This document shows positions 3,246-54,510 of a stretch of DNA of 64,000 nucleotides, in pieces. The translations under genes were made by a program, and so were the position numbers. Every line of letters starts with the position of its first letter. Positions within the stretch are counted from its first letter, which is position 1. Origin of the DNA: Erinaceus europaeus. Lineage: Eukaryota > Chordata > Mammalia > Eulipotyphla > Erinaceidae. The notes beneath the pieces are model-generated. The model had not been told where the DNA came from. It worked only from the letters and a program-made list of their open reading frames with translations, and did not search any database. Location of the stretch: NCBI RefSeq assembly GCF_950295315.1, contig NC_080171.1, positions 90,393,016 through 90,457,015 of the forward strand, in the 5' to 3' direction.

Positions 3246-3670
3246 ATATACGCGGATATCTTCGCCCACCCTGTTCAACGCTTGACGTCTCGTCACCCAA
3301 TCTGGTCCCCTACGCCTGCACTGAACTTCTCTGTTCCAGTCTCTTGGAAACAGAGTTGGCAGTCAGCTGAGGTAAAGAGCAAACACCTCATCACAGACCC
3401 CTGCAAGCATCAACCCGGCTTTGACCTAGCACGTTATGATTGGGCTCTCCTCAATTGCTACCGAATAGGCCATGGCCGGTGCACCGCTATTTCCATCGCT
3501 GGGGAGCCAAAGATGACCCGAACTGCCCCTGCAGCTACAGACAGACTATGACCCACATAGTCAACGACTGCCACCTCTCCAGATTCAAAGGAGGTCTCGA
3601 AACTTTACATCAGGCTCAACCTGATGCTGTTGACTGGCTACAGAAGAAGGGCAAACGCTAGAAGAAGAAG
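3246..3670 (+). mobile_element. Foreign LINE copy 1: 3' end of a non-L1 non-LTR retrotransposon
   Basis: This 5'-truncated copy codes for the C-terminus of a non-LTR retrotransposon polymerase and aligns with 17876-18586 and 45263-45510. Visible landmarks are a PVSWKQSWQSAEV stretch, LITDP, QPGFDLARYDWALLN, a CxC...H...C knuckle (NCPC...THIVNDC) and the terminus WLQKKGKR followed by TAG at 3659-3661. The frame breaks near 3490, where one base is missing compared with copy 2. Copy 1 keeps a segment of about 24 bp (near 3378-3402, encoding the LITDP part) that copy 2 lacks. The last 111 bases up to the stop are identical to copy 2. The TAG runs straight into AAG repeats, so there is no 3' UTR. 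No clear target duplication is visible. The motif style is that of arthropod-type Jockey/I/CR1-like elements; the exact clade is not settled. Confidence 0.8.
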
Positions 3671-3806
3671 GAGGAGGAGGAGGAGGAGGAGGAGGAGGAG
3701 GAGGAGGAGAGAAGAAGAAGAAGAAGAAGAAGAAGAAGAAGAAGAAGAAGAAGAAGAAGAAGAAGAAGAAGAAGAAGAAGAAGAAGAAGAAGAAGAAGAA
3801 GAGGAA
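3662..3806 (+). repeat. (AAG/GAG)n microsatellite grown from the LINE tail
   Basis: AAG units directly after the LINE stop codon pass into GGA/GAG units (about 3669-3709) and then a long AAG/GAA run to about 3802. Copies 2 and 3 have only about three AAG units here, so the run in copy 1 has probably expanded since insertion. Long frames through it (poly-Glu, poly-Ser) are artefacts. Confidence 0.9.
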
Positions 3807-11491: not shown

Positions 11492-12842
11492 TTAAGAAGA
11501 TCTGAAAGGGAAACTATAAGCAGGATCTGATCAATTTGTAAGTAGGGCACCAAAGTAAAAACCCTGTGGTGAGGGGTAGACATGCAGCTTCCTAGGCCAG
11601 TGGGGGGTGGGAGTGGGTGTGAGGGATGGGTCACAGTCTTTTGGTGGTGGAAATGGTGTTTATGTACCTTCTAGCAAAATGTAGACATATAAATCACTAG
11701 TTAATTAATATGAGAGGGGGAAAATCAATTGTATGTCTCAAAGTTTCTCAAAACACAAACTGAATCTTTTTAATATATAGGCTGTGTATTTGATATGCGG
11801 ACTCTCTCAAAAGCCTAGACCAAGTAGATTAGAAGCATCCAATAGCAGAGCTATATACAAGATACTGGATACTGTACAGCAAACCATAACAAAAGGACTT
11901 TTCAAAGTTAACCCAATTACCAAATAATGTGATGATAACATTAGCTATCGATTGTCTTTTTGAACCCTAAGACAGCAGGAACCTCACATCTCCACTATAG
12001 AGCCCCTACATCCCCCAGTCCTGGAACCCTTGGATAGGGCCCACTTTCCCATATGCCTCTCCCAATCCATACCAAATAATATTGCATCCGCCAATCACAA
12101 CCTAACCAACGCAACGATTGCCACCTCAACATGCTTCACCTCAGACTGTGTCCAGAGACTTCACGTGTGGAATGACAACCCTTCAGCTTCATTACTCGGG
12201 TGAGACCTTTCCTTTTATAGTACACTCTAATTTCATCTCAGGTGGTTCACTTCCTAACAAAGTCCCATAACCTAGATATACACCACTGTCTGTGAGAGAG
12301 AGCTTATGTTCACACGTATCCATAAACTACTGCAAAATATATACCTGAAAGCAGAAGTACACTAGAGTTTGCAATGAGTACCTCCCTAACACTTCCTCTC
12401 CACTATTCCAAGCTTTGGGTCCATGATTGCTCAACAATTTGTTTGGCTTCGTATGTTAACTCTCTTTTCAATCACCAGGTTCCAGATGCCACCAGGACGC
12501 TGGCCAGGCTTCCCTGGATTGAAGACCCCACCAATGTGTCCTGGAGCTCCGCTTCCCCAGATACCCACCCTACTACGGAAAGAGAGAGGCAGACTGGGAG
12601 TATGGACCGACCAGTCAATGCCCATGTTCAGCGGGGAAGCAATTTCAGAAGCCAGACCTACCTTCTGCAACCCTCAATGACCCTGGGTCCATGTTCCCAG
12701 AGGGATAGAGAATGGGAAAGCTATCAGGGGAGGGGGTAGGTTATGGAGATTGGGTGGTGGGAATTGTGTGGAGTTGTACCCCTCCTACCTTATGGTTTTG
12801 TTAATTAATCCTTTCTTAAATAAAAAAAGAAAAGAAAAGAAA
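11492..12842 (+). other. L1-A 3' UTR and first A-rich tail
   Basis: The 3' UTR includes a G-rich tract (about 11600-11632) and the subfamily-specific end ggtggtgggaattgtgtgg...gtacccctcc, then CTTAAATAAAAAAAG. The same end is found in L1-B, L1-C and L1-D. Confidence 0.85.
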
Positions 12843-16871: not shown

Positions 16872-17791
16872 GTGGATAAACCAAGAGCAAATAAAACTGC
16901 TACTACAGTGAATGAAGACAGGAGCCCAGCAGAAACTACAAATCAGTCAGAAGTAACCATAGATAAGAAAAGTATGCAAGCAATAGTAAATTTAATAATC
17001 ACAGAAATGAAAACAACTTTGGAGGAAAGGGCTAGCAGAATTAAGGAAAAAACAGATGAGACCCTCAAGGAAAATACTAACTACCTTGAGGCAATTAGGG
17101 AACTGAAAGCTGAAATAGCTGAACTGAAGAAAGAAGCTGAGGGAAGGGAAAGCAGACTAACAGAATCAGAAAACAGAATTAGCCAGACAGAGTATGAGCA
17201 AGAGAAAACTAAGAAAGAGGTAAAAGAGCTCAAAAAGAGATTGAGAGATACAGAAAACAACAACAGAGAGATATCGGATGATCTCAAAAGAATTAACATT
17301 CATATAATTGGTCTGCCAGAGGAAGAAAGAGAGGAAGGGTAAGTAAACATTCTAGAAGAAATTATAAAGAAAACTTCTTAGACCTGAACAACACCAAAAA
17401 GGACGTTAAGATGTAAGAGGCCCAGAGAGTGCCAAACAGAATCAACCCGGACCTGAAGACACCAAGACACATAATATTTACAATGAAAAAAAGTAAGGAT
17501 AAAGAAAGGATCCTAAAGGCTGCAAGAGAAAAACAAAAAGTCACATACAGGGGAGCATCTATGAGACTATCAGCAGACTTATCCACACAAACTCTAAAAG
17601 TCAGAAGAGAATGGCAACATATGTATAGAGCCCTACATGTAAAAGGGTTTCAACCAAGGATAATATATCCTGCTAGACTTTCATTCAAACTAGATGGAGG
17701 GATAGGGATCAAAACCTTCTGAGACAAACAGTTAAAGGAGGCAACCATCACAAAGCCTGGCCTGAAAGAGGTTCTGAAAGACCTCTTATAA
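16872..17791 (+). pseudogene. L1-B ORF1
   Basis: The first 156 codons from the ATG at 16872 are open. After a polar N-terminus there is a long heptad-rich coiled coil (about residues 45-125: repeated E, K, L, as in IRELKAEIAELKKEAE), then the start of the RRM (RDTENNNREISDDLKRINIHIIGLPEEE). A TAA at 17341-17343 (GAA lost after GGG) ends the frame. Further indels near 17370-17415 follow, and the C-terminal domain resumes in another frame (17429-17722: RINPDLKTPRHIIFTM...), ending at TAA 17789-17791. ORF1p coats L1 RNA as a trimer; this copy is dead. Confidence 0.85.
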
Positions 17792-17875
17792 ACAAGAACA
17801 TCACTATAATACTTAAAATATATCAGAACAAATAAAAAACTGTTGAATAATGGCACTACAATACATTAAATCCAT

Positions 17876-18586
17876 CTTCTTCTTCTAGCGTTTGCCCTTC
17901 TTCTGTAGCCAGTCAACAGCATCAGGTTGAGCCTGATGTAAAGTTTCGAGACCTCCTTTGAATCTGGAGAGGTGGCAGTCGTTGACTATGTGGGTAATAG
18001 ACTGTCTGTAGCCGCAGGGGCAGTTCGGGTCGTCTCTGGCTCCCCAGCGATGGAACATAGCAGCACACTGGCCATGGCCTGTTCGATAGCGATTGAGGAG
18101 GGCCCAATCATAACGTGCTAGGTCAAAGCCGGGTTGACGCTTGCAGGTTACCTCAGCTGACTGCCAGCTCTGTTTCCAAGAAACTGGAACAGAGAAGTTC
18201 AGTGTAGGTGTAGGGGACCAGATTGGGTGACGAGACATCAAGTGTTGAACAGGGTGGGCGAAGATATCCGCGTATATTGGCAGGTCCGGTGGAGCGTAGA
18301 CGTGGGAAATGAACTTAGATGATGCCGCATCCCAACGAATATCTGGCGGGGCGATGTTGCTAAGAACTGGCAGCCATGGAACCAGGGTGGAACGGATGGT
18401 TCCAGAAATTATCCTCATGGAGGAATATAATTTGGAATCGACCAAGTGGACATGGGGGCTACGGAACCATACTGGGGCACAGTATTCTGCAGTGGAATAG
18501 CATAATGCCAGAGATGATGATCGTAGTGTGGAAGCGCTCGCGCCCCATGAGGAGATGGCCAGTCTTACAATGATGTTATTCCTCCA
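17876..18586 (-). mobile_element. Foreign LINE copy 2, inserted in L1-B with TSD
   Basis: The 711 bp insert interrupts L1-B ORF2 and is flanked by TAAATCCAT at 17867-17875 and 18587-18595, so it came in after L1-B. On the minus strand one frame stays open across the whole insert to TAG 17885-17887 (about 230 codons). It reads RNNIIVRL...SWGASASTLRSSSLALCYS, EYCAPVWFRS, RIISGTIRS, PWLPVLSNIAPP, QPGFDLARYDWALLNRYRTGH, a CxC...H...C knuckle (NCPCGYRQSITHIVNDC), GGLETLHQA and WLQKKGKR. This is the region after the RT fingers/palm of Jockey/I/CR1-like elements as I know them from arthropods and other invertebrates. Endonuclease and RT catalytic motifs are absent because of 5' truncation. The tail is only AAG units after TAG. 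It is the youngest-looking coding sequence in the window. Confidence 0.88.
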
Positions 18587-20960
18587 TAAATCCATAATAT
18601 CAATAAATGTCAGTGGCTTAATCTCACCCATTAAAAGGCACAGAGGGGAGGATGGATCAGAAAACATAACCCAACCATATGCTACTTGCAAGAATCCCAT
18701 CTGACACAACAAAATAAACACAGACTTAAAGTGAAAGGATGGAAAACTATCATACAGGCTAATGGACCACAAAAAAAGGCAGGAACAGCCATCCTCATCT
18801 CTGACACAATAGATTTTAAATTAATAAAGTAGTAGAAGATAGGCAAGGGCATTACATAATGATTAGAGGATTAATCAGCCAAGAAAACAACAATTATTAA
18901 CATCTATGCACCCAATGAGGGACCATCTAAATATATCAAATAGCTAATTAAAGAACTACAAAAATACATCAATAGTAATAGAATAATAGTAGGAGATTTT
19001 AACACCCACTGTCACACTTAGATCAATAAAGCAGAGAATCAATAAAGAAATAAGACAAGTAAATGAAGAGATAGACAAACCAAACCTCCTGGGTATTTTA
19101 AGAGTTCTTCACCCCAAAAGCTGGAATACACATTCTTTTCAAATCCACACAACACATACTCAAGGATAGACCACATGTTAGGCCACAAAGACAGCATCAA
19201 CAAATTCAAGAGAACTGAAATCATCCCAAGTATCTTCTCAAACCACAGTGGAGTAAAGATAACATTTAACAACAAACAGAAAATTATTAAAAGACACAGA
19301 ATTTGGAAACTAAACAACATACTGCTTAATAACCACTGGGTCAGAGAGACACTCAAGCAAGAAATTCAAATGTTCCTGGAAACAAATGAAAATGAAGACA
19401 CACACTATCAAAATATTTGGGACACAGCTAAAGTAGTTTTGAGAAGGAAACTCATAGCCATGCAATCACATATTAAAGAACAAGAAAACGCTAAAAAAAA
19501 AAAAAAAGCTACTTACTGCACACCTTAAGGACTTAGAAGAAGAGGAGCAAAGGTACCCTAAAGCAACCAGAAGGGCAAAAATCACTAAAATTAGAACAGA
19601 AATAAACAACATAAAAAATAAGAGAAACATAGCAAAGAACAATGATGCCAAACATTGGATATTTGAAAAATTAAACAAGGACTTTTGTTCTTGGGGAGAT
19701 TCTTAATAAGGGTTTCATTCTTTGTCTGTGATTGGTGTTTTTAGATTTTGTAGTTCTTCATGGTTCAGTATTGGAAGGGCATATGCTTCTAGGAATTCTT
19801 CCATTTCGTCCAGATTTTCTAGCTTGGTGGCGTATAGTTCTTCATAGAAATTTCACGTGATTTTCTGGACTTCTGTGGTGTCAGTTGTGATATCTCCTCC
19901 ATCGTTTACAATTCTATGGATTTGAGTCTTCTACCTTTTTTGTTTACTGAGTCTGGCTAGGGATTTGTCAATTTTGTTTTATCTTTCAAAGAACCAACAT
20001 TTGGCCTCATTGATCTTCTGTATGGTTCTCTTATTTTCGATGTTGTTTATTTCTGTTATAATTTTAGTGATTTATGTCCTTCTGGTTGCTTTAGGTTTCC
20101 TTTGTTCCTCTTCCTCTAAGTCTTTGAGGTGTGCAGTAAGGTCGTTTATTTGACTTTTTCTTGTTGTTTAATATGTGATTGTATGGCTATGAGTTTCCCT
20201 CTCAATACTGCTTTAGCTGTATCCCAAATATTTTGATAGGTTGTGTCTTCATTTTCATTTGTTTCCAGGAACATTTGAATTTCTTGCTTGAGTGACTCTC
20301 TGACACAGTGGTTGTTAAGGAGTATGTTGTTTAGTTTCCAAATTCTGTGTCTTTTAATAATTTTCTGTTTGTTGTTAAATGTTAGTTTTACTCCACTGTG
20401 GTCTGAGAAGATACTTGGGATGATTTCAATGCTCTTGAATTTATTGATGCTATCTTTGTGGCCTAACATGTGGTCTATCCTTGAGTATGTGTTGTGTGGA
20501 TTTGAAAAGAATGTGTATTCCAGTTTTTTGGGGTGAAGGGCTCTGAAGATGTCCATGCAGTATAGTCTGACAATATCTTCATTTAATTCTTATTTCTTTG
20601 TTGATTCTCTGCTTTGTTGATCTGTCTAATTGTGAGAGTGGGGTGTTAAAATCTCCCACTATTATTGTATTACTACTGATGTAGATGAGTGGCCGAGAAA
20701 GTTGTGGTATATATATATATATATATATATACACAATGGAATACTATGCAGCTACTAAGAACAATGAACTCAACTTCTCTGACCTATCTTGGTCAGAGCT
20801 AGAAGGAATTATGTTAAGTGAGCTAAGTCAGAAAGATAAAGATGAGTATGGGATGATCCCACTCATCAACAGAAGTTGAAAAAGAAAATCAGAAAGGGAA
20901 ACTAAAGGCAGGATCTGACTAAATTGAAAGTAGGGCACCAAAGTAAAAACCCTGTGGTGA

Positions 20961-21133: not shown

Positions 21134-24100
21134 AATCACTATTCAATTATTATGAGAGGGGTAAAATAGATTGCATGTCTAACAAAGGGACTTTTCAAAG
21201 CTAACCCAATTACCAAATAATGTGATGATAATAGTAACTATCCATTGTCTTCTCAAACCCTAAGACAGCAGGAACGTCACATTTCCACTATAGAGCCTAA
21301 ACTGCCCCCAGTCCTGGGACCATAGGGTAGGGCCCGCTTTCCCGTATGCTTCTCACAATTCTTATCAAATAATATTGCATCTGCTGACTGCAACCTAATC
21401 AATGCAACGAGTGCCACCTCAGCATGCTTCACTTCAGACTGTGTACAGAGACTTCAGGTGTGGAATGACAACCCTTCAGCTTCATCATTCAGGTGAGACC
21501 TTTCCTTTCATAGTATTCTCTAACTCCATCCCAGGTGGTTCACTTCCTAACAAAGTCCCAAAACCTAGATATAGACTAGGTTCCAGGAGTAGAGCATATG
21601 TTCACATGTATCCATAAACTAAGGCAAATATATACCTGAAAGCAGTAGTAAACTAGAGTTTGAGTGAGTACCCCCCAACACTTCATCTCCACTATTCTAA
21701 CCTTTGGGTCCATGATTCTTTAACAGTTTGTTTGGCTTTGTATGTTAACTCTCTTTTCAGCCACCAGGTTCCAGATGCCATCAGGATGCCGGCCAGGCTT
21801 CCCTGGACTGAAGACCCCACCAATATGTCCTGGAGCTCCGCTTCCCCAGAAACCCACCCTACAAGGAAAGAGAGAGGCAGACTGGGAGTATGGATCGACC
21901 AGTTAACACCCATGTTCAGCGGGGAAGCAATTACAGAAGCCAGACCTACCACCTTCTGCAACACACAATGACCCTGTGTCCATGCTCCCAGAGGGATAGA
22001 GAATGGGAAAGCTATTGGGGAGGGGATGGGATATGGAGATTTGTTGGGGGGAATTGCGTGGAGTTGTACCCCACATCCTATGATTTTGTTAATGTCTCCT
22101 TTCTTAAATAAATAAATTAATTAATAAAAAAAGAAAAATTAAACAAGATTGACCAACCACTAGGCAGACTCACTAAAATAAAAAAGACTCAAATTAATAG
22201 AATTGTAAACGATAAAGGAGGTATCACAACTGACACCACAGAAATAAAGAAAATCATGCAAAACTTCTATGCCACCAAGCTAGAAAATCTAGAAGAAATG
22301 GAAGAATTTTATAAACATATGCCCTTCCAAAACTGGACCAAGAACTACAAAACCTAAATACACCAATTACAGACAGAGAAATTGAAACAGTTATTAAGGA
22401 TCTCCCCAACAACAAAAGTCCTGGACCAGATGGCTTCACAAACAAATTCTACAAGACCTTCAGGAAACACTTAATAACCATAATTCTAAAGCTTTTCCAC
22501 AAGGTCAATGACACAGGAACACTCCCTATCACCCTCTATGAAGCCAACATCACCCTGATACCAAAAGAAGATAGGAACACAGCAAAAAAGGAAAAGTGTA
22601 GACCAATATCTCTGATGAACATAGATGACAAAATATTAAACAAGATCTTGGCCAATAGGATACAGCAGCATATCAAAAAGATTGTTCATCACAACCAAGT
22701 GGGATTCATCCCAGGAATGCAAGGCTGATTCAACATATGTAAGTCAAACAATGTCATTCACCACATCAATAAAAGCAAAGCCAAAAACCACATGATTATC
22801 TCAATAGATGCAGAGAAAGCCTTTGACAAAATCCAACACCCATTCATGCCCAAACTCTACAAAAAATGGAAATAGTCGGGAAATTCCTGAAGATGGGGAA
22901 TCCATATATAACAAACCTACAGCAAACACAATACTCAATGGACAAAAGCTGAAAGCATTCCTCCTCATATCAGGTAATAGACAGGGCTGTCCACTGTCAC
23001 CATTACTCTTCAACAAAGTATTGGAAGTTCTTGCCATAGCAATCAGGCAAGAGAAAGAAGTCACAGGAATACAGATTGGAAGGGAAGAAGTCAAGCTCTC
23101 ACTATTTGCAGATGATATGATAGTATCCATAGAAAAACCTAAAGAATCCAGCAGAAAACTACTGGAAGTTATTAGGCAATATAGCAAGGTATCAGGCTAC
23201 AAAATCAATGTACAAAAATCAGTGGCATTTCTCTATGCAAACACTATATCTGAAGAAGACATCCAGAAATCACTCCCCTTTACTGTTTCAGCAAAATCAA
23301 TAAAATACCTAGGAATAAAGCTGACCCAAGAAGTGAGAGACTTGTATACTGAAAACTATGAGTCGCTATTCAAAGAAATAGAAACTCATACCAAGAAATG
23401 GAAAGACATACCATGCTCATGGATTGGAAGAATTAATATCATCAAAATGAATATTCTCCCTAGAGCCATATACAAATTCAATGAGATACCCATCAAAGTT
23501 CCACGAAGCTTCTTTAAGAGAATAGAACAAACACTACAATAATTTATCTGGAACCAGAAAACACCTAGAATTGCCAAAACTATCTTGAGGAAAAGAAACA
23601 GAAATGAAGGCATCACACTCCCAGATCTTAAACTATATTATAAGGCCATCATCATCAAAACAGCTTGGTGCTGGAACAAAAATAGGCACACAGACCAGTG
23701 GAACAGAATTGAAAGCCCAGATCTAAACCCCCACACCTATGGACATATAATCTTTGATAAGGGGGCCCAAAGTTTAAATGGAAGAAGGAGGCTCTCTTCC
23801 ATAAATGGTGCTGGGAAAACTGGGTTGTAACATGCAGAAGAATGAAACTGAACCACCTTATCTCACCAGAAACAAAAATCAACTCCAAATGGATCAAGAA
23901 CCTTTATGTTACATCAGAAACTATCAAATACATAGAGGAAATCATTGGTGGAACACATTCCCACCTAAACCTCAAGGACATCTTTGATGAAACAAATCCA
24001 ATTGCAAGGAAGACTAAAGCAGAAACAAACCAATGATTACATCAAATTGAAAAGCTTCTGCACAGCCAAAGAAACTATCACACAAAGAGACCCCCTCACA

Positions 24101-24812: not shown

Positions 24813-26161
24813 AGACTGAAGAACAGAAAGAGAAACTAAAAGTAGTATTTAATTAAATGCAGAGTAGGGCACCAAAGTGAAAACCCTGTGTTGAGTGTGA
24901 GGGTGGACATTAGGCTTCCTGGAGTGGCTGGGGGTGTGGGAGTGGGTGGATGGAATGGGACATAGTCTTTTGGTCGTGGTAATGGTGTTTATGTACACTC
25001 CTATTAAAGTGTAGTCATATAAATCACTATTTAATTAATATGAGAGGGGAAAATTGATTGTATGTCTCAAACTTTTTAAAGCACAGACTGAGTCTTTAAT
25101 ACATAGGCTGAGTCTCTGATATGTTGACTCTCTCAAAAGCCTAGACCAGGGAGAACAGAAGCAACTAGTGCTGCAGCTATATACAAGATGCTGGGTATTA
25201 TACAGCAAACCCTGACAAAGGGACTTTTCAAAGTTAACTCAATTACCAAATAATGTGACGATAATAACTATCCATTGTCTTCTTGAACTCTAAGACAACA
25301 TGAACCTCACATTTCCACTATAGAGCTTATATTTTCCCCGTTCCAGAAACTTAGGGTGGGGCACACTTTCCTGTATGCTTCTTTCAATTAATATCAAATA
25401 ATATTGCATCTGCCTATCACAACTTAGTCAATACAATGAGTGCCACCTCAGCATGCTTCACCTCAGACTTCAGGTTTGGAATGACAACCCTTTAGCTTAA
25501 TTACTCAAGTAAGACCTTTCCTTTCATAGTATTCTCTAATTCCATTCCAGGTGGTTCACTTCCTAAGAAAGACCTAAAACTTAGATATAGACCAGGTCCC
25601 CTGAGATAGAGCATATGTTCACACGTAACCATAAACTAGGGAAAAATATATACCTGAGAGCAAAATTACACAATAGTCTGCAGTGAGTACCCCCCCCAAC
25701 ACTTCATCTGCACTATTCCAGCCTTTAGGTCCATAATTGTTCAACAATTTTTTTTTGGCTTTGTATGTTAACTCTCTTTTCAGCCACCAGGTTCCAGATG
25801 CCAGCAGGATGCCTACCAGACTTCCTTGGACAGAGGACACCACCAATATGTCCTGGAGCTCTGCTTCCCCAGAGACCCACCCTAATAGCCAAAGAGAGAG
25901 GCAGACTGGGAGTATGGACTGACTAGTCAAGGCCCATGTTCAGCGGGGAAGCAATTACAGAAGCCAGACCTTCCACCTTCTGCACCCTATAATGACCCTG
26001 ATTCCATACTCCCAGAGAGATAAAGAAAGAATAGGAAAGCTATCAGGGGAGGGGATGGAATATAGAGATCTAGTGGTGGGAATTGTGTGGAGTTGTACCC
26101 CTCCTATCCTATGGTTTTGTTAATGTCTCCTTTTTTAAATAAATAAATAAATAAATAAATT
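24813..26161 (+). other. L1-B 3' UTR and first A-rich tail
   Basis: The order of blocks is the same as in L1-A (11492-12842), more diverged, ending ccttttttaaataaataaataa at about 26161. Confidence 0.8.
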
Positions 26162-27679: not shown

Positions 27680-27983
27680 GGGAGTCGGGCTGTAGCACAG
27701 CGGGTTAAGCGCAGGTGGCGCAAAGCACAAGGATCGGCATAAGGATCCTGGTTCGAGCCCCGGCTCCCCACCTGCAGGGGAGTCGCTTCACAGGCAGTGA
27801 AGCAGGTCTGCAGGTGTCTATCTTTCTCTCCTCCTCTCTGTCTTCCCCTCCTTCTCTCCATTTCTCTCTGTCCTATCCAACAACGACAACAACAATAATA
27901 ACTACAACAATAAAAAAAAACAGCAAGGGCAACAAAAGGGAATAAATAAAAAATAAAATATTAAAAATAAATAAATAAATAAA
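27680..27983 (+). mobile_element. Complete young tRNA-derived SINE
   Basis: This is the best copy of the family that points to hedgehog. It is flanked by taaataatatatacc at 27665-27679 and 27984-27998. The pol III A box (gtagcacagcggg, 27692-27704) and B box (GGTTCGAGCC, 27750-27759) are intact. Then come the ccccacctgcaggggag segment, a CT-rich body, the cctatccaacaacgacaac stretch and an (AATA)n tail. Pol III transcripts of this type depend on L1 proteins for movement, which is inferred from the A-rich tail and the TSD style. Confidence 0.93.
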
Positions 27984-45065: not shown

Positions 45066-45262
45066 AAAAAAAAAAAAGTAGGGTTTCATAGCCACAGTGG
45101 TGAAATACATAAACAATACACTGTTATGCTTGATAACTCAGTAACTCAGTAAAGAAAAAAAAAACTACCTGTGACTGAGATAACTTTCAGTCAACCTCAA
45201 TATTTGACATGGTACTAAAGTGAAGTAAAATGCTGTGTAACAGTTACATTTATATACTGCAA

Positions 45263-45510
45263 CCTAGCACGTAATGATTGGGCCCTCCTCAATCACTATC
45301 AAACAGGCCATGGCCGGTGCACTGCTATGTTCCACCGCTGGGGAGACAGAGACAACCCGAACTGCCCCTGTGGCTACAGACAGACTGTGACCCACATAGT
45401 CAAGGACTGCCACCTCTTCAGATTCAAAGGAGGTCTCGAAACTTTACATCAAGCTCAACCTGACACTGTTAACTGGCTACGGAAGAAGGGCAAACGCTAG
45501 AAGAAGAAGA
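45263..45510 (+). mobile_element. Foreign LINE copy 3, with TSD
   Basis: This is the shortest copy, flanked by ACTGCAA at 45256-45262 and 45511-45517. It starts at the codon region for LAR.DWALLN and runs to TAG 45498-45500, then AAGAAGAAGA. The correct frame holds the CxC...H...C knuckle (NCPCGYRQTVTHIVKDC) and ends with KKGKR. Over the last 111 bases it differs from copies 1 and 2 at seven positions, so it is a separate, somewhat older or differently sourced insertion. Confidence 0.85.
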
Positions 45511-45599
45511 ACTGCAATCAAAGATATGTTCCAGAAAATTAAAATGGAAACTCCTTAAAGTAAAGAGTACTGTTTTTACTATTTAAAATGTAATTATTA

Positions 45600-45762
45600 A
45601 AAAAAAGTAATTATTATTATTATTATTATTACTTTTAACCAGAGCACTTCTGAGCTCTGATTTGTGGTGGTGCTAGTGATTAAACCTGGGGTCTTTAGTG
45701 CCTCAGATATGAATATCTTTTTTTGCATAGCTGTTATGCTATCTCCCCAACTCAAGAGTATT
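45600..45762 (-). mobile_element. Old tRNA-derived SINE, minus strand
   Basis: (ATT)n tail side, agagcacttctgagctctg, gattaaacctggggtc and gttatgctatctcccc. Confidence 0.7.
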
Positions 45763-47015: not shown

Positions 47016-47827
47016 CAAGCTGTTCTTCTGTTTCAAAATGAACTATAGCATTTTTTTCAGTAACCAGATTCTGGAAATAGGGCATCTTCCTTGCCCTATA
47101 TATCTAATATTCTTTAGTTATTTCTTTCTTTATTTTATTTTATTTAAGAAAGGATTAATTAACAAAACCATAAGGTAGGAGGGGTACAACTCCACACAAT
47201 TCCCACCACCCAATCTCCATAACCCACCCCCTCCCATGATAGCTTTCCCATTCTCTATCCCTCTGGGAGCATGGACCCAGGGTCATTGAGGGTTGCAGAA
47301 GGTAGAAGGTCTAGCTTCTGTAATTGCTTCCCTGCTGAAAATGGGCATTGACTGGTCGGTCCATACTCCCAGTCTGCCTCTCTCTTTCCCTAGTAGGGTG
47401 TGTCTCTTGGGAAGCTGAGCTCCAGGACACATTGGTGGGATCTTCAATCCAGGGAAGCCTGGCCATCATCCTGGTGGCATCTGGAACCTGGTGATTGAAA
47501 AGAGAGTTAACATACGAGGCCAAACAAATTGTTGAGCAATCATGGATCCCAAGCTTGGAATAGTGGAGAGGAAGTGTATCACTGCAAACTGTAGTGTACT
47601 TCTGTTTTCAGGTATATATTTTGCAGTAGTTTATGGATACGTGTGAACATAAGCTCTCTGTCACAGAAACTGGTGTGTATCTAGGTTATGGGACTTTGTT
47701 AGGAAGTGAACCACCTGAGATGAAATTAGAGTGTACTATAAAAGGAAAGGTCTCACCCGAGTAATGAAGCTGAAGGGTTGTCATTCCACACGTGAAGTCT
47801 CTGGACACAGTCTGAGGTGAAGCATGT

Positions 47828-53584: not shown

Positions 53585-54495
53585 CTCTTCATTGTTACTG
53601 GTCATTTCTATCAGGAACAATACAATAGACCCATTTGCTGTACCTGAGGAAGATGGGTCCTGATATTGGGGCAGCTTGGAATGTTCCTACTTATGACCAC
53701 AGAATGTAAGCTCAGATCTAAAGGGATGCTGAGGTCACATAGGCTCCTAAGCTGAATATGGGCCCCAGATCACATAAAATCAATGGGGTTTACAATCAAC
53801 AATATTTATACCCCTTTCTCATATTAGGGAGCTACTCTCTTCTCTGATCCATATTTCTGGTCTTTTTTCCAGTCATGACATCTTCTTCATAATCAATAAT
53901 TAGAATCCACCCACCTTCATATCAGATTTCAGGCTCAGACAAAACGAAACAAAACAAAAAAAAAACCTAGTATAGCCACAGACCCTTTAGACTATAACTA
54001 AAATATGCCTACTAGCTATCTACAAAATGGAGACCCCCTTCCCCCAACTATTCATCTGCACTATTCCAGACTTTTGGTCCATGATTGGCCAACAATTTGT
54101 TTGGCTTTTTATATTAACTCTCTTTTCAACCTCCAGGTTCCAAATGCTAGCATGATGCCAACCAGACTTCCCTGGACTGACAACCCCAACAATGTGTTCT
54201 GGAGCTCTGCTTCCCCTGAACCCCCACCCTACTAGGGAAAGAGAGAGGCAGACTGGGTGTATAAATCAATCACTCAACACCCATGATCAGCAGGGAAGCA
54301 ATTACAGAAGCCAGACCTTCTACCTTCTGCAGCCCACAATGACCTTGGGTTCATACTCCCAGAGGGATAAAAATAGGAAAGCTATAAGGCGAGGGGATGG
54401 GATACGGAGATCTTATGGTGGGAATTGTGTGGAGTTGTACCCCTCTTATTCTATGGTTTAGTCAATGTTTCCTTTTTATAAATAAAATAAAAAAG
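53585..54495 (+). mobile_element. 5'-truncated L1 inserted in a SINE, with TSD
   Basis: gaaagagagagatga occurs at 53570-53584 and 54496-54510. The insert has the long-3'-UTR subfamily blocks (53690-53850) and the standard end ggtgggaattgtgtggag...tataaataaaataaaaaa. Confidence 0.88.
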
Positions 54496-54510
54496 GAAAG
54501 AGAGAGATGA

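What the first reader, a model, noticed from the sequence alone, without database searches (positions are those of the whole stretch)
17876..18586. A second, arthropod-like LINE, recently active beside L1: candidate horizontal transfer
Seen: three 5'-truncated copies (3246-3670, 17876-18586, 45263-45510) share an open-frame C-terminus with SWGASASTLRSS, PWLPVLSNIAPP, QPGFDLARYDWALLN and a CxC...H...C knuckle. Copy 2 is open across 711 bp and carries a 9 bp TSD inside an L1. Copies 1 and 2 are identical over their last 111 bases. Known: native placental LINEs are L1, L2 and CR1/L3 relics, plus BovB in some lineages; BovB spread has been linked to ticks. From memory, these peptide motifs belong to Jockey/I/CR1-like elements of arthropods and other invertebrates. 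Inference: the element entered this lineage horizontally and was recently active.
Basis: partly seen in the sequence, partly recalled or inferred. Interest (0 to 1): 0.8.

Follow-up and report, generated by a model that had tools for sequence, protein, structure and literature searches.

The report
Known Vingi retrotransposon of hedgehogs
The odd second jumping gene in this hedgehog-like genome is real and still has coding copies, but it is almost certainly Vingi, known from hedgehogs since 2011 and already suspected then of having come in from another species.

Summary
The three copies are real: one non-L1 non-LTR retrotransposon, 5'-truncated, ending directly after the stop codon in a short repeat tail. 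Copy 2 sits in an L1 with a 9-bp duplication; its empty site is visible in two other L1 copies. In the host genome (2.72 Gb) the 3' end occurs 37,814 times. Full-length ~3.1-kb copies code for endonuclease and reverse transcriptase, with no RNase H found. Six of 20 sampled 3' ends are ~166-bp deletion forms. This fits Vingi-1 of hedgehogs (Kojima, Kapitonov & Jurka 2011; not held, known from memory and from citing papers). So a second, recently active LINE is right, but published. 'Arthropod-like' is not supported: the 11 named arthropod rows in the tree lie beyond a 100/100 branch; a coelacanth row and unnamed rows lie with the host element. Horizontal transfer is a published proposal, not shown here: the closest listed non-host protein is 61-63% identical, and Vingi relics in human allow vertical descent. 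Other mammals could not be searched.

The parts
3246..3661 (+). Copy 1: 5'-truncated Vingi C-terminus, frame broken by a 1-base deletion, keeps the 24 nt lost from copy 2; 3.4% from the majority of 19 genomic copies
3662..3806 (+). (AGA)n tail of copy 1, grown into a microsatellite of about 49 units
17867..17875 (.). Left target-site duplication of copy 2, TAAATCCAT
17876..17884 (-). Simple-repeat tail of copy 2, (AAG)3 read on the - strand, directly after the stop codon
17885..18586 (-). Copy 2: 5'-truncated Vingi C-terminus, 233 open codons plus stop, with a private in-frame 24-nt deletion; 2.7% from the majority
18587..18595 (.). Right target-site duplication of copy 2, TAAATCCAT
17501..18995 (+). 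Stretch of the L1 that hosts copy 2; with the insert and one duplication left out it aligns to two other L1 copies of the window
45256..45262 (.). Left target-site duplication of copy 3, ACTGCAA
45263..45500 (+). Copy 3: short 5'-truncated Vingi C-terminus, frame open to the stop codon; 6.3% from the majority, the most diverged of the three
45501..45510 (+). (AAG)n tail of copy 3
45511..45517 (.). Right target-site duplication of copy 3, ACTGCAA

Best explanation
The copies belong to Vingi, the non-LTR retrotransposon published from hedgehogs (Vingi-1_EE and relatives). The full-length element is about 3.1 kb with one reading frame: an AP-like endonuclease, then a reverse transcriptase, then a C-C-H-C knuckle; no RNase H found, almost no 3' UTR, and usually a short (AAG)n tail directly after the stop codon. 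It most likely moves by target-primed reverse transcription: the endonuclease nicks genomic DNA, the enzyme starts copying its RNA at the repeat tail, and it often stops early, leaving 5'-truncated copies between short target-site duplications. Shown here: domains, truncation, tails, duplications, an empty site, copy number. Inferred: the enzymology, and that ~166-bp internally deleted derivatives are moved in trans. How the family reached the hedgehog lineage (horizontal transfer or patchy vertical survival) is open.
For: Host genome: the 22-nt 3' end with up to 1 mismatch occurs 19,007 + 18,807 times, the pattern read backwards 0 times. All 46 matches scored (of 73,449 loose candidates) to a 1003-aa relative cover nearly its whole length, 5 of 46 without internal stop. 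The open 901-aa frame of L009 has PF14529 and PF00078 above cut-off and no RNase H family up to E = 1. Of relatives of 981-1019 aa, 8 of 8 scanned have endonuclease and RT families and none an RNase H. Exact flanking repeats of 8-12 bp in 8 of 20 chosen copies and of 9-13 bp in 9 of 20 sampled 3' ends. 6 of those 20 are internal-deletion forms, first ~110-135 bases joined to the last ~54-67, as recalled for Vingi-1N families; Vingi-1N3_EE with 311 copies under 1% divergence in hedgehog is in a table of PMC3183009. Hedgehog host: SINEs at 27680-27883 and elsewhere match the Erinaceus SINE as I recall it.
Against: No Vingi reference sequence (Repbase, Dfam) was at hand, so the name rests on host, architecture and the literature, not on an alignment. 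The original paper is not held. The host species is inferred from recalled SINEs and from the element itself, which is partly circular. No RNase H positive control was run. In 12 of 20 and 11 of 20 fetched places no repeat of those lengths was found.
Confidence: 0.95

Rival explanations
1. Horizontal transfer: Vingi entered the hedgehog lineage from another animal after it split from other eulipotyphlans and then amplified.
For: Called likely for hedgehogs in print (PMC3183009 passage; 2011 paper recalled). Large, low-divergence family. Among the 120 proteins listed the only one over 64% identical to P0159 is P0159 itself, which is 90.8% identical to copy 2 and so most likely from a hedgehog. 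RTE1_Sar in the shrew is a published precedent (PMC6542046, passages).
Against: No donor is near: best other listed protein 61-63% identical. Vingi traces in human (PMC5753468 and PMC9004415), Vingi in reptiles and Anolis mean the clade is old in amniotes. Absence from other mammals was not tested here.
Confidence: 0.55
2. Vertical descent with loss: Vingi survived in the ancestors of hedgehogs while dying out in most other mammals, then burst recently.
For: Human genome keeps Vingi relics, at least one pre-amniote; the one named vertebrate row, the coelacanth, is on the host element's side of the tree and the named arthropods are not.
Against: Needs many independent losses and long silent survival. 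Recalled from the 2011 paper: none in 33 other mammal genomes.
Confidence: 0.4
3. A specifically arthropod donor (for example ticks).
For: Vingi-like proteins occur in named arthropods: Cordylochernes, Phlebotomus, Cinara, two Callosobruchus, Diaphorina, Nilaparvata, Cyamophila. The origin of most rows beside the host element is unknown.
Confidence: 0.08
4. Contamination or assembly artefact.
For: None found.
Against: Copy 2 is nested in a host L1 with a duplication, and matches are spread over many chromosome-sized contigs.
Confidence: 0.01

Closest known systems
Vingi-1_EE / Vingi-1_AAl, Vingi clade of non-LTR retrotransposons (Kojima, Kapitonov & Jurka 2011, Mol Biol Evol 28:17-20; text not held, content recalled)
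   Same: Host, domain order endonuclease-RT, no RNase H, compact size, internally deleted derivatives, recent expansion
   Different: No difference found; sequence identity to the deposited consensus could not be measured
Vingi-like proteins of Latimeria (P0035) and of unnamed contigs P0217, P0219, P0145
   Same: Same side of the tree; P0217 61% and P0219 60% identical to P0159; P0219 has endonuclease and RT
   Different: No close identity; P0035 49% to copy 2; taxon unknown for the unnamed ones
Vingi-like elements of arthropods (pseudoscorpion, sand fly, psyllids, planthopper, beetles, aphid)
   Same: Same architecture where full-length (P0254 of Phlebotomus: endonuclease + RT, no RNase H)
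   Different: Separated from the host element by a fully supported branch; 40-49% identical
L1 of the same window
   Same: Target-primed style insertion, 5' truncation
   Different: Only 20-26% identity in RT and endonuclease stretches, apart from one 15-residue piece at 53%; different C-terminus
RTE1_Sar of the common shrew (PMC6542046)
   Same: A LINE in a eulipotyphlan for which horizontal transfer is argued, in that case with parasitic nematodes
   Different: RTE clade, a different element; that paper did not detect it in hedgehog (passages)

Membership tests
Vingi | AP-type endonuclease domain N-terminal to RT | tested here: met
   Host copy L009: PF14529 E 7.6e-10 and PF00078 E 6e-30; 8 of 8 near full-length relatives
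Vingi | No RNase H domain (recalled as the feature that separates Vingi from Ingi) | tested here: met
   No RNase H family up to E = 1 in L009, in P0159, or in 8 relatives; no positive control run
Vingi | Phylogenetic place as sister of Ingi in an RT tree | not tested
   No labelled Ingi, I, Jockey or Repbase Vingi sequences were available
Vingi | Hedgehog host | tested here: inconclusive
   SINEs match the Erinaceus SINE from memory; genome of 2,720,570,532 bases is unnamed
Vingi | Internally deleted non-autonomous derivatives (Vingi-1N) | tested here: met
   6 of 20 sampled 3' ends join the first ~110-135 bases to the last ~54-67
Vingi | Sequence identity to the Repbase consensus | not testable with these tools
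   Repbase and Dfam are not held
Ingi / I (RNase H-bearing) | RNase H domain after RT | tested here: not met
   no positive control run
RTE / BovB | Close match to BovB or RTE1_Sar | not tested
   No reference sequences at hand; no listed hit carries such a name, but most carry none
Arthropod lineage of this family | Grouping with named arthropod elements | tested here: not met
   11 of 11 named arthropod rows used are on the other side of a 100/100 branch; SH-aLRT 100 with 128 rows

The most novel reading that the evidence does not exclude
Hedgehog Vingi came by horizontal transfer not from an arthropod but from a donor in the coelacanth-side branch of the family (an unsampled vertebrate or other animal), and grew to about 38,000 recognisable 3' ends, with copies lacking any internal stop still present, so that a mammal may today host a mobile LINE other than L1.
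Probability: 0.3. Interest if true: 0.55.

Novelty: already known. Interest (0 to 1): 0.25.

Why it matters
LINEs other than L1 that were recently active are rare in placental mammals (from general knowledge), so hedgehog Vingi is a natural test of whether such elements arrive by transfer or by patchy survival. That case is in the literature since 2011. What is added here is a genome-wide count of 3' ends, full-length frames in the host genome, a first look at the share of small deletion forms, and the finding that the named arthropod relatives are not the nearest ones.

Tried and rejected
Looked for relatives with DNA context in viral contigs and in prokaryote genome contigs: pattern matches but no relative confirmed. 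Rfam and tRNA scan: nothing. Pfam on the copy 2 fragment alone: no family up to E = 1. Considered L1, BovB/RTE and CR1 as identity: L1 is excluded by the low identity; for BovB/RTE and CR1 no reference was at hand, and they are set aside on the literature match. Considered the 111-base identity of copies 1 and 2 as gene conversion: not followed up.

Limits. Dating uses 2.2e-9 per site per year, the rate used in PMC12026660 (passage); the hedgehog rate is unknown, CpG sites were excluded only, and the copies come from the best-scoring matches, so they lean young. L022 of the 20 copies fetched was left out because its 3' end was not found, leaving 19. The 20 places were every fifth of the 100 listed, all on contig C1 and all exact matches, so not a random genome sample; in one region (L038) the script read the neighbouring listed place instead of the intended one. 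For flanking repeats I dropped hits of 5-7 bp (L010, L016, L018, L022, L027; L036, L039) and one hit that is the element's own 3' end (L033); some accepted repeats begin with bases that may belong to the tail. For the trees, 177 proteins passed the length rule and were thinned at 80% identity to 127, plus the window copy. I labelled 11 arthropod rows; nine further named arthropod proteins of the listings (P0036, P0038, P0048, P0058, P0069, P0077, P0105, P0166, P0211) are not in the trees. The 48-row tree keeps 27 of the 34 unnamed inner rows, the 11 arthropod rows, the coelacanth, two host rows and 7 others, chosen by me. Copy 2 and the coelacanth row fill only 41% and 38% of its columns. Paper searches for the element or its donor.

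Full report
What was checked. Copy 2 has 233 open codons; 20 shuffles of the window gave at most 178. Copy 1 is frameshifted by one base, so only copies 2 and 3 are open. Copy 2 lacks 24 nt present in copy 1 and in 19 of 19 other genomic copies. Its duplication TAAATCCAT and the L1 around it are confirmed: joined flanks align across the junction to two other L1 copies of the window. Copy 3 has its own 7-bp duplication ACTGCAA. For copy 1 I saw no clear duplication in the printed flanks.

The family. The copy 2 protein finds 363 proteins at E <= 0.01; the 120 listed are at most 53% identical. Named ones include a pseudoscorpion, an aphid, a sand fly, a bean beetle and the coelacanth. A profile search brought P0159, a 582-aa protein from an unnamed 2072-base contig, 90.8% identical to copy 2. 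It has the RT and the residues lost from copy 2. Its first 20 residues read the element backwards, as after a 5' inversion or in a chimeric contig. A search with P0159 gave 2384 proteins at E <= 0.001, of which 120 are listed; the best after itself are 61-63% identical. Relatives of about 1000 aa carry endonuclease and RT families and no RNase H (8 of 8 scanned).

The host genome. The genome search answered. The window lies in a 2.72-Gb assembly. With the copy 2 protein, 150 matches were scored out of 40,076 loose candidates, at 93-96% identity besides itself; by my count of the listing 19 of 150 have an internal stop in the matched part. The 22-nt 3' end with up to one mismatch occurs 37,814 times, the pattern read backwards 0 times; this count includes deletion forms and misses more diverged copies. 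With the 1003-aa relative P0220, 46 matches were scored out of 73,449 candidates, nearly all spanning residues 14-1002, 5 of 46 without internal stop. Two fetched full-length copies, L009 and L024, have 9-bp duplications. L009 has an open 901-aa frame with endonuclease and RT families; the frame begins roughly 100 residues later than in the relatives.

How it works. Bodies end at the stop codon, followed by (AAG)n tails, short in nearly all fetched copies. Exact flanking repeats of 8-12 bp were found in 8 of 20 copies chosen for long frames or high score, and of 9-13 bp in 9 of 20 places taken at every fifth row of the listing. In the others no such repeat was found by the script, which needs an exact match and a well-placed 5' end. 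Of the latter 20 places, 6 are internal-deletion forms of about 166 bp and 14 match only a 3' part of L024, so look 5'-truncated. This is the anatomy left by target-primed reverse transcription; the biochemical steps are inferred from what is known of non-LTR elements.

Age. Distances of 19 high-scoring copies to their majority over the last 0.7 kb have a median of 1.7% (0.6-3.4%), with copy 2 at 2.7%, copy 1 at 3.4% and copy 3 at 6.3%. At 2.2e-9 per site per year these would be about 7.7, 12.3, 15.5 and 28.6 million years. Pairwise distances of the window copies give 12.2, 20.5 and 24.2 million years with all sites and 7.4, 14.6 and 14.8 without CpG sites. Rate and CpG effects make all of this rough, and the 19 lean young. 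The closest pair among the 19 differs by 1.5%, so the copies seen here do not themselves show activity today. The 14 truncated copies are 94.2-98.7% identical to the single copy L024. PMC3183009 lists 311 Vingi-1N3_EE copies under 1% divergence in hedgehog (passage), which points to later activity of at least a non-autonomous family.

Known or new. From memory, Kojima, Kapitonov and Jurka (2011) described Vingi-1 in Erinaceus and Atelerix, without RNase H, with 11 deletion families, absent from 33 other mammals, and suggested horizontal transfer while not ruling out vertical descent. The paper is not held. What I saw: its title in the reference lists of PMC5753468, PMC3183009, PMC3391268 and PMC3747384; the sentence calling hedgehog Vingi a likely horizontal transfer (PMC3183009); [quoted passage not shown] one pre-amniote Vingi fossil in human (PMC9004415); Vingi in locust, Heliconius and Anolis. 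All were passages, not whole papers. A 2025 study of the African hedgehog lists 4476 I-Jockey LINE copies and 47,737 unclassified LINE copies and does not use the word Vingi in its main text (PMC12026660, passages); whether any of these are Vingi was not tested.

Donor. In the 48-row careful tree the host element groups with unnamed P0145 and P0217 (bootstrap 99 / SH-aLRT 89), then P0147 (99/91). The coelacanth row is on the same side, and the 11 named arthropod rows used are on the other side (100/100). The quick 128-row tree gives the same split but puts P0158 next to the host element (SH-aLRT 88), so the immediate neighbour is unstable. Since the unnamed rows may come from any animal, the tree speaks against the named arthropods only.

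Verdict. An already known element, correctly spotted as foreign-looking and recently active. 'Arthropod-like' is not supported by the tree.

Noticed in passing
3660-3806: The tail of copy 1 has grown into a GGA/AGA microsatellite of about 49 triplets, while tails measured in most fetched copies are about 5-16 bases; L035 also has a 106-base purine tail.
   Followed up: no
3551-3661 and 17885-17995: Copies 1 and 2 show no difference in their last 111 coding bases although they differ at 20 of 392 sites overall; p = 0.0013 if random (computed with 402 columns), chosen after the fact. Gene conversion or uneven mutation could cause it.
   Followed up: partly
L009:1436-1521: Full-length copy L009 has 86 bases where copies L010 and L024 have 11, near the 5' end; may be a 5' variant or a later insert.
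   Followed up: no
L029, L039-L043: About 166-bp elements made of the first ~110-135 and last ~54-67 bases of the full-length element, with flanking repeats of up to 13 bp; 6 of 20 sampled 3' ends, so perhaps thousands in the genome.
   Followed up: partly
P0159, residues 1-20: The unnamed contig protein begins with 20 residues that read the element's own C-terminal region on the opposite strand, like a 5' inversion or a chimera.
   Followed up: no
12126-12841, 21419-22116, 25465-26150, 47121-47800, 54041-54501: A repeat of some 450-700 bp present in many copies in the window, probably the L1 3' end.
   Followed up: no
45603-45636: A 34-base stretch of TAT/ATT triplets beside copy 3 that is 82% self-complementary.
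   Followed up: no
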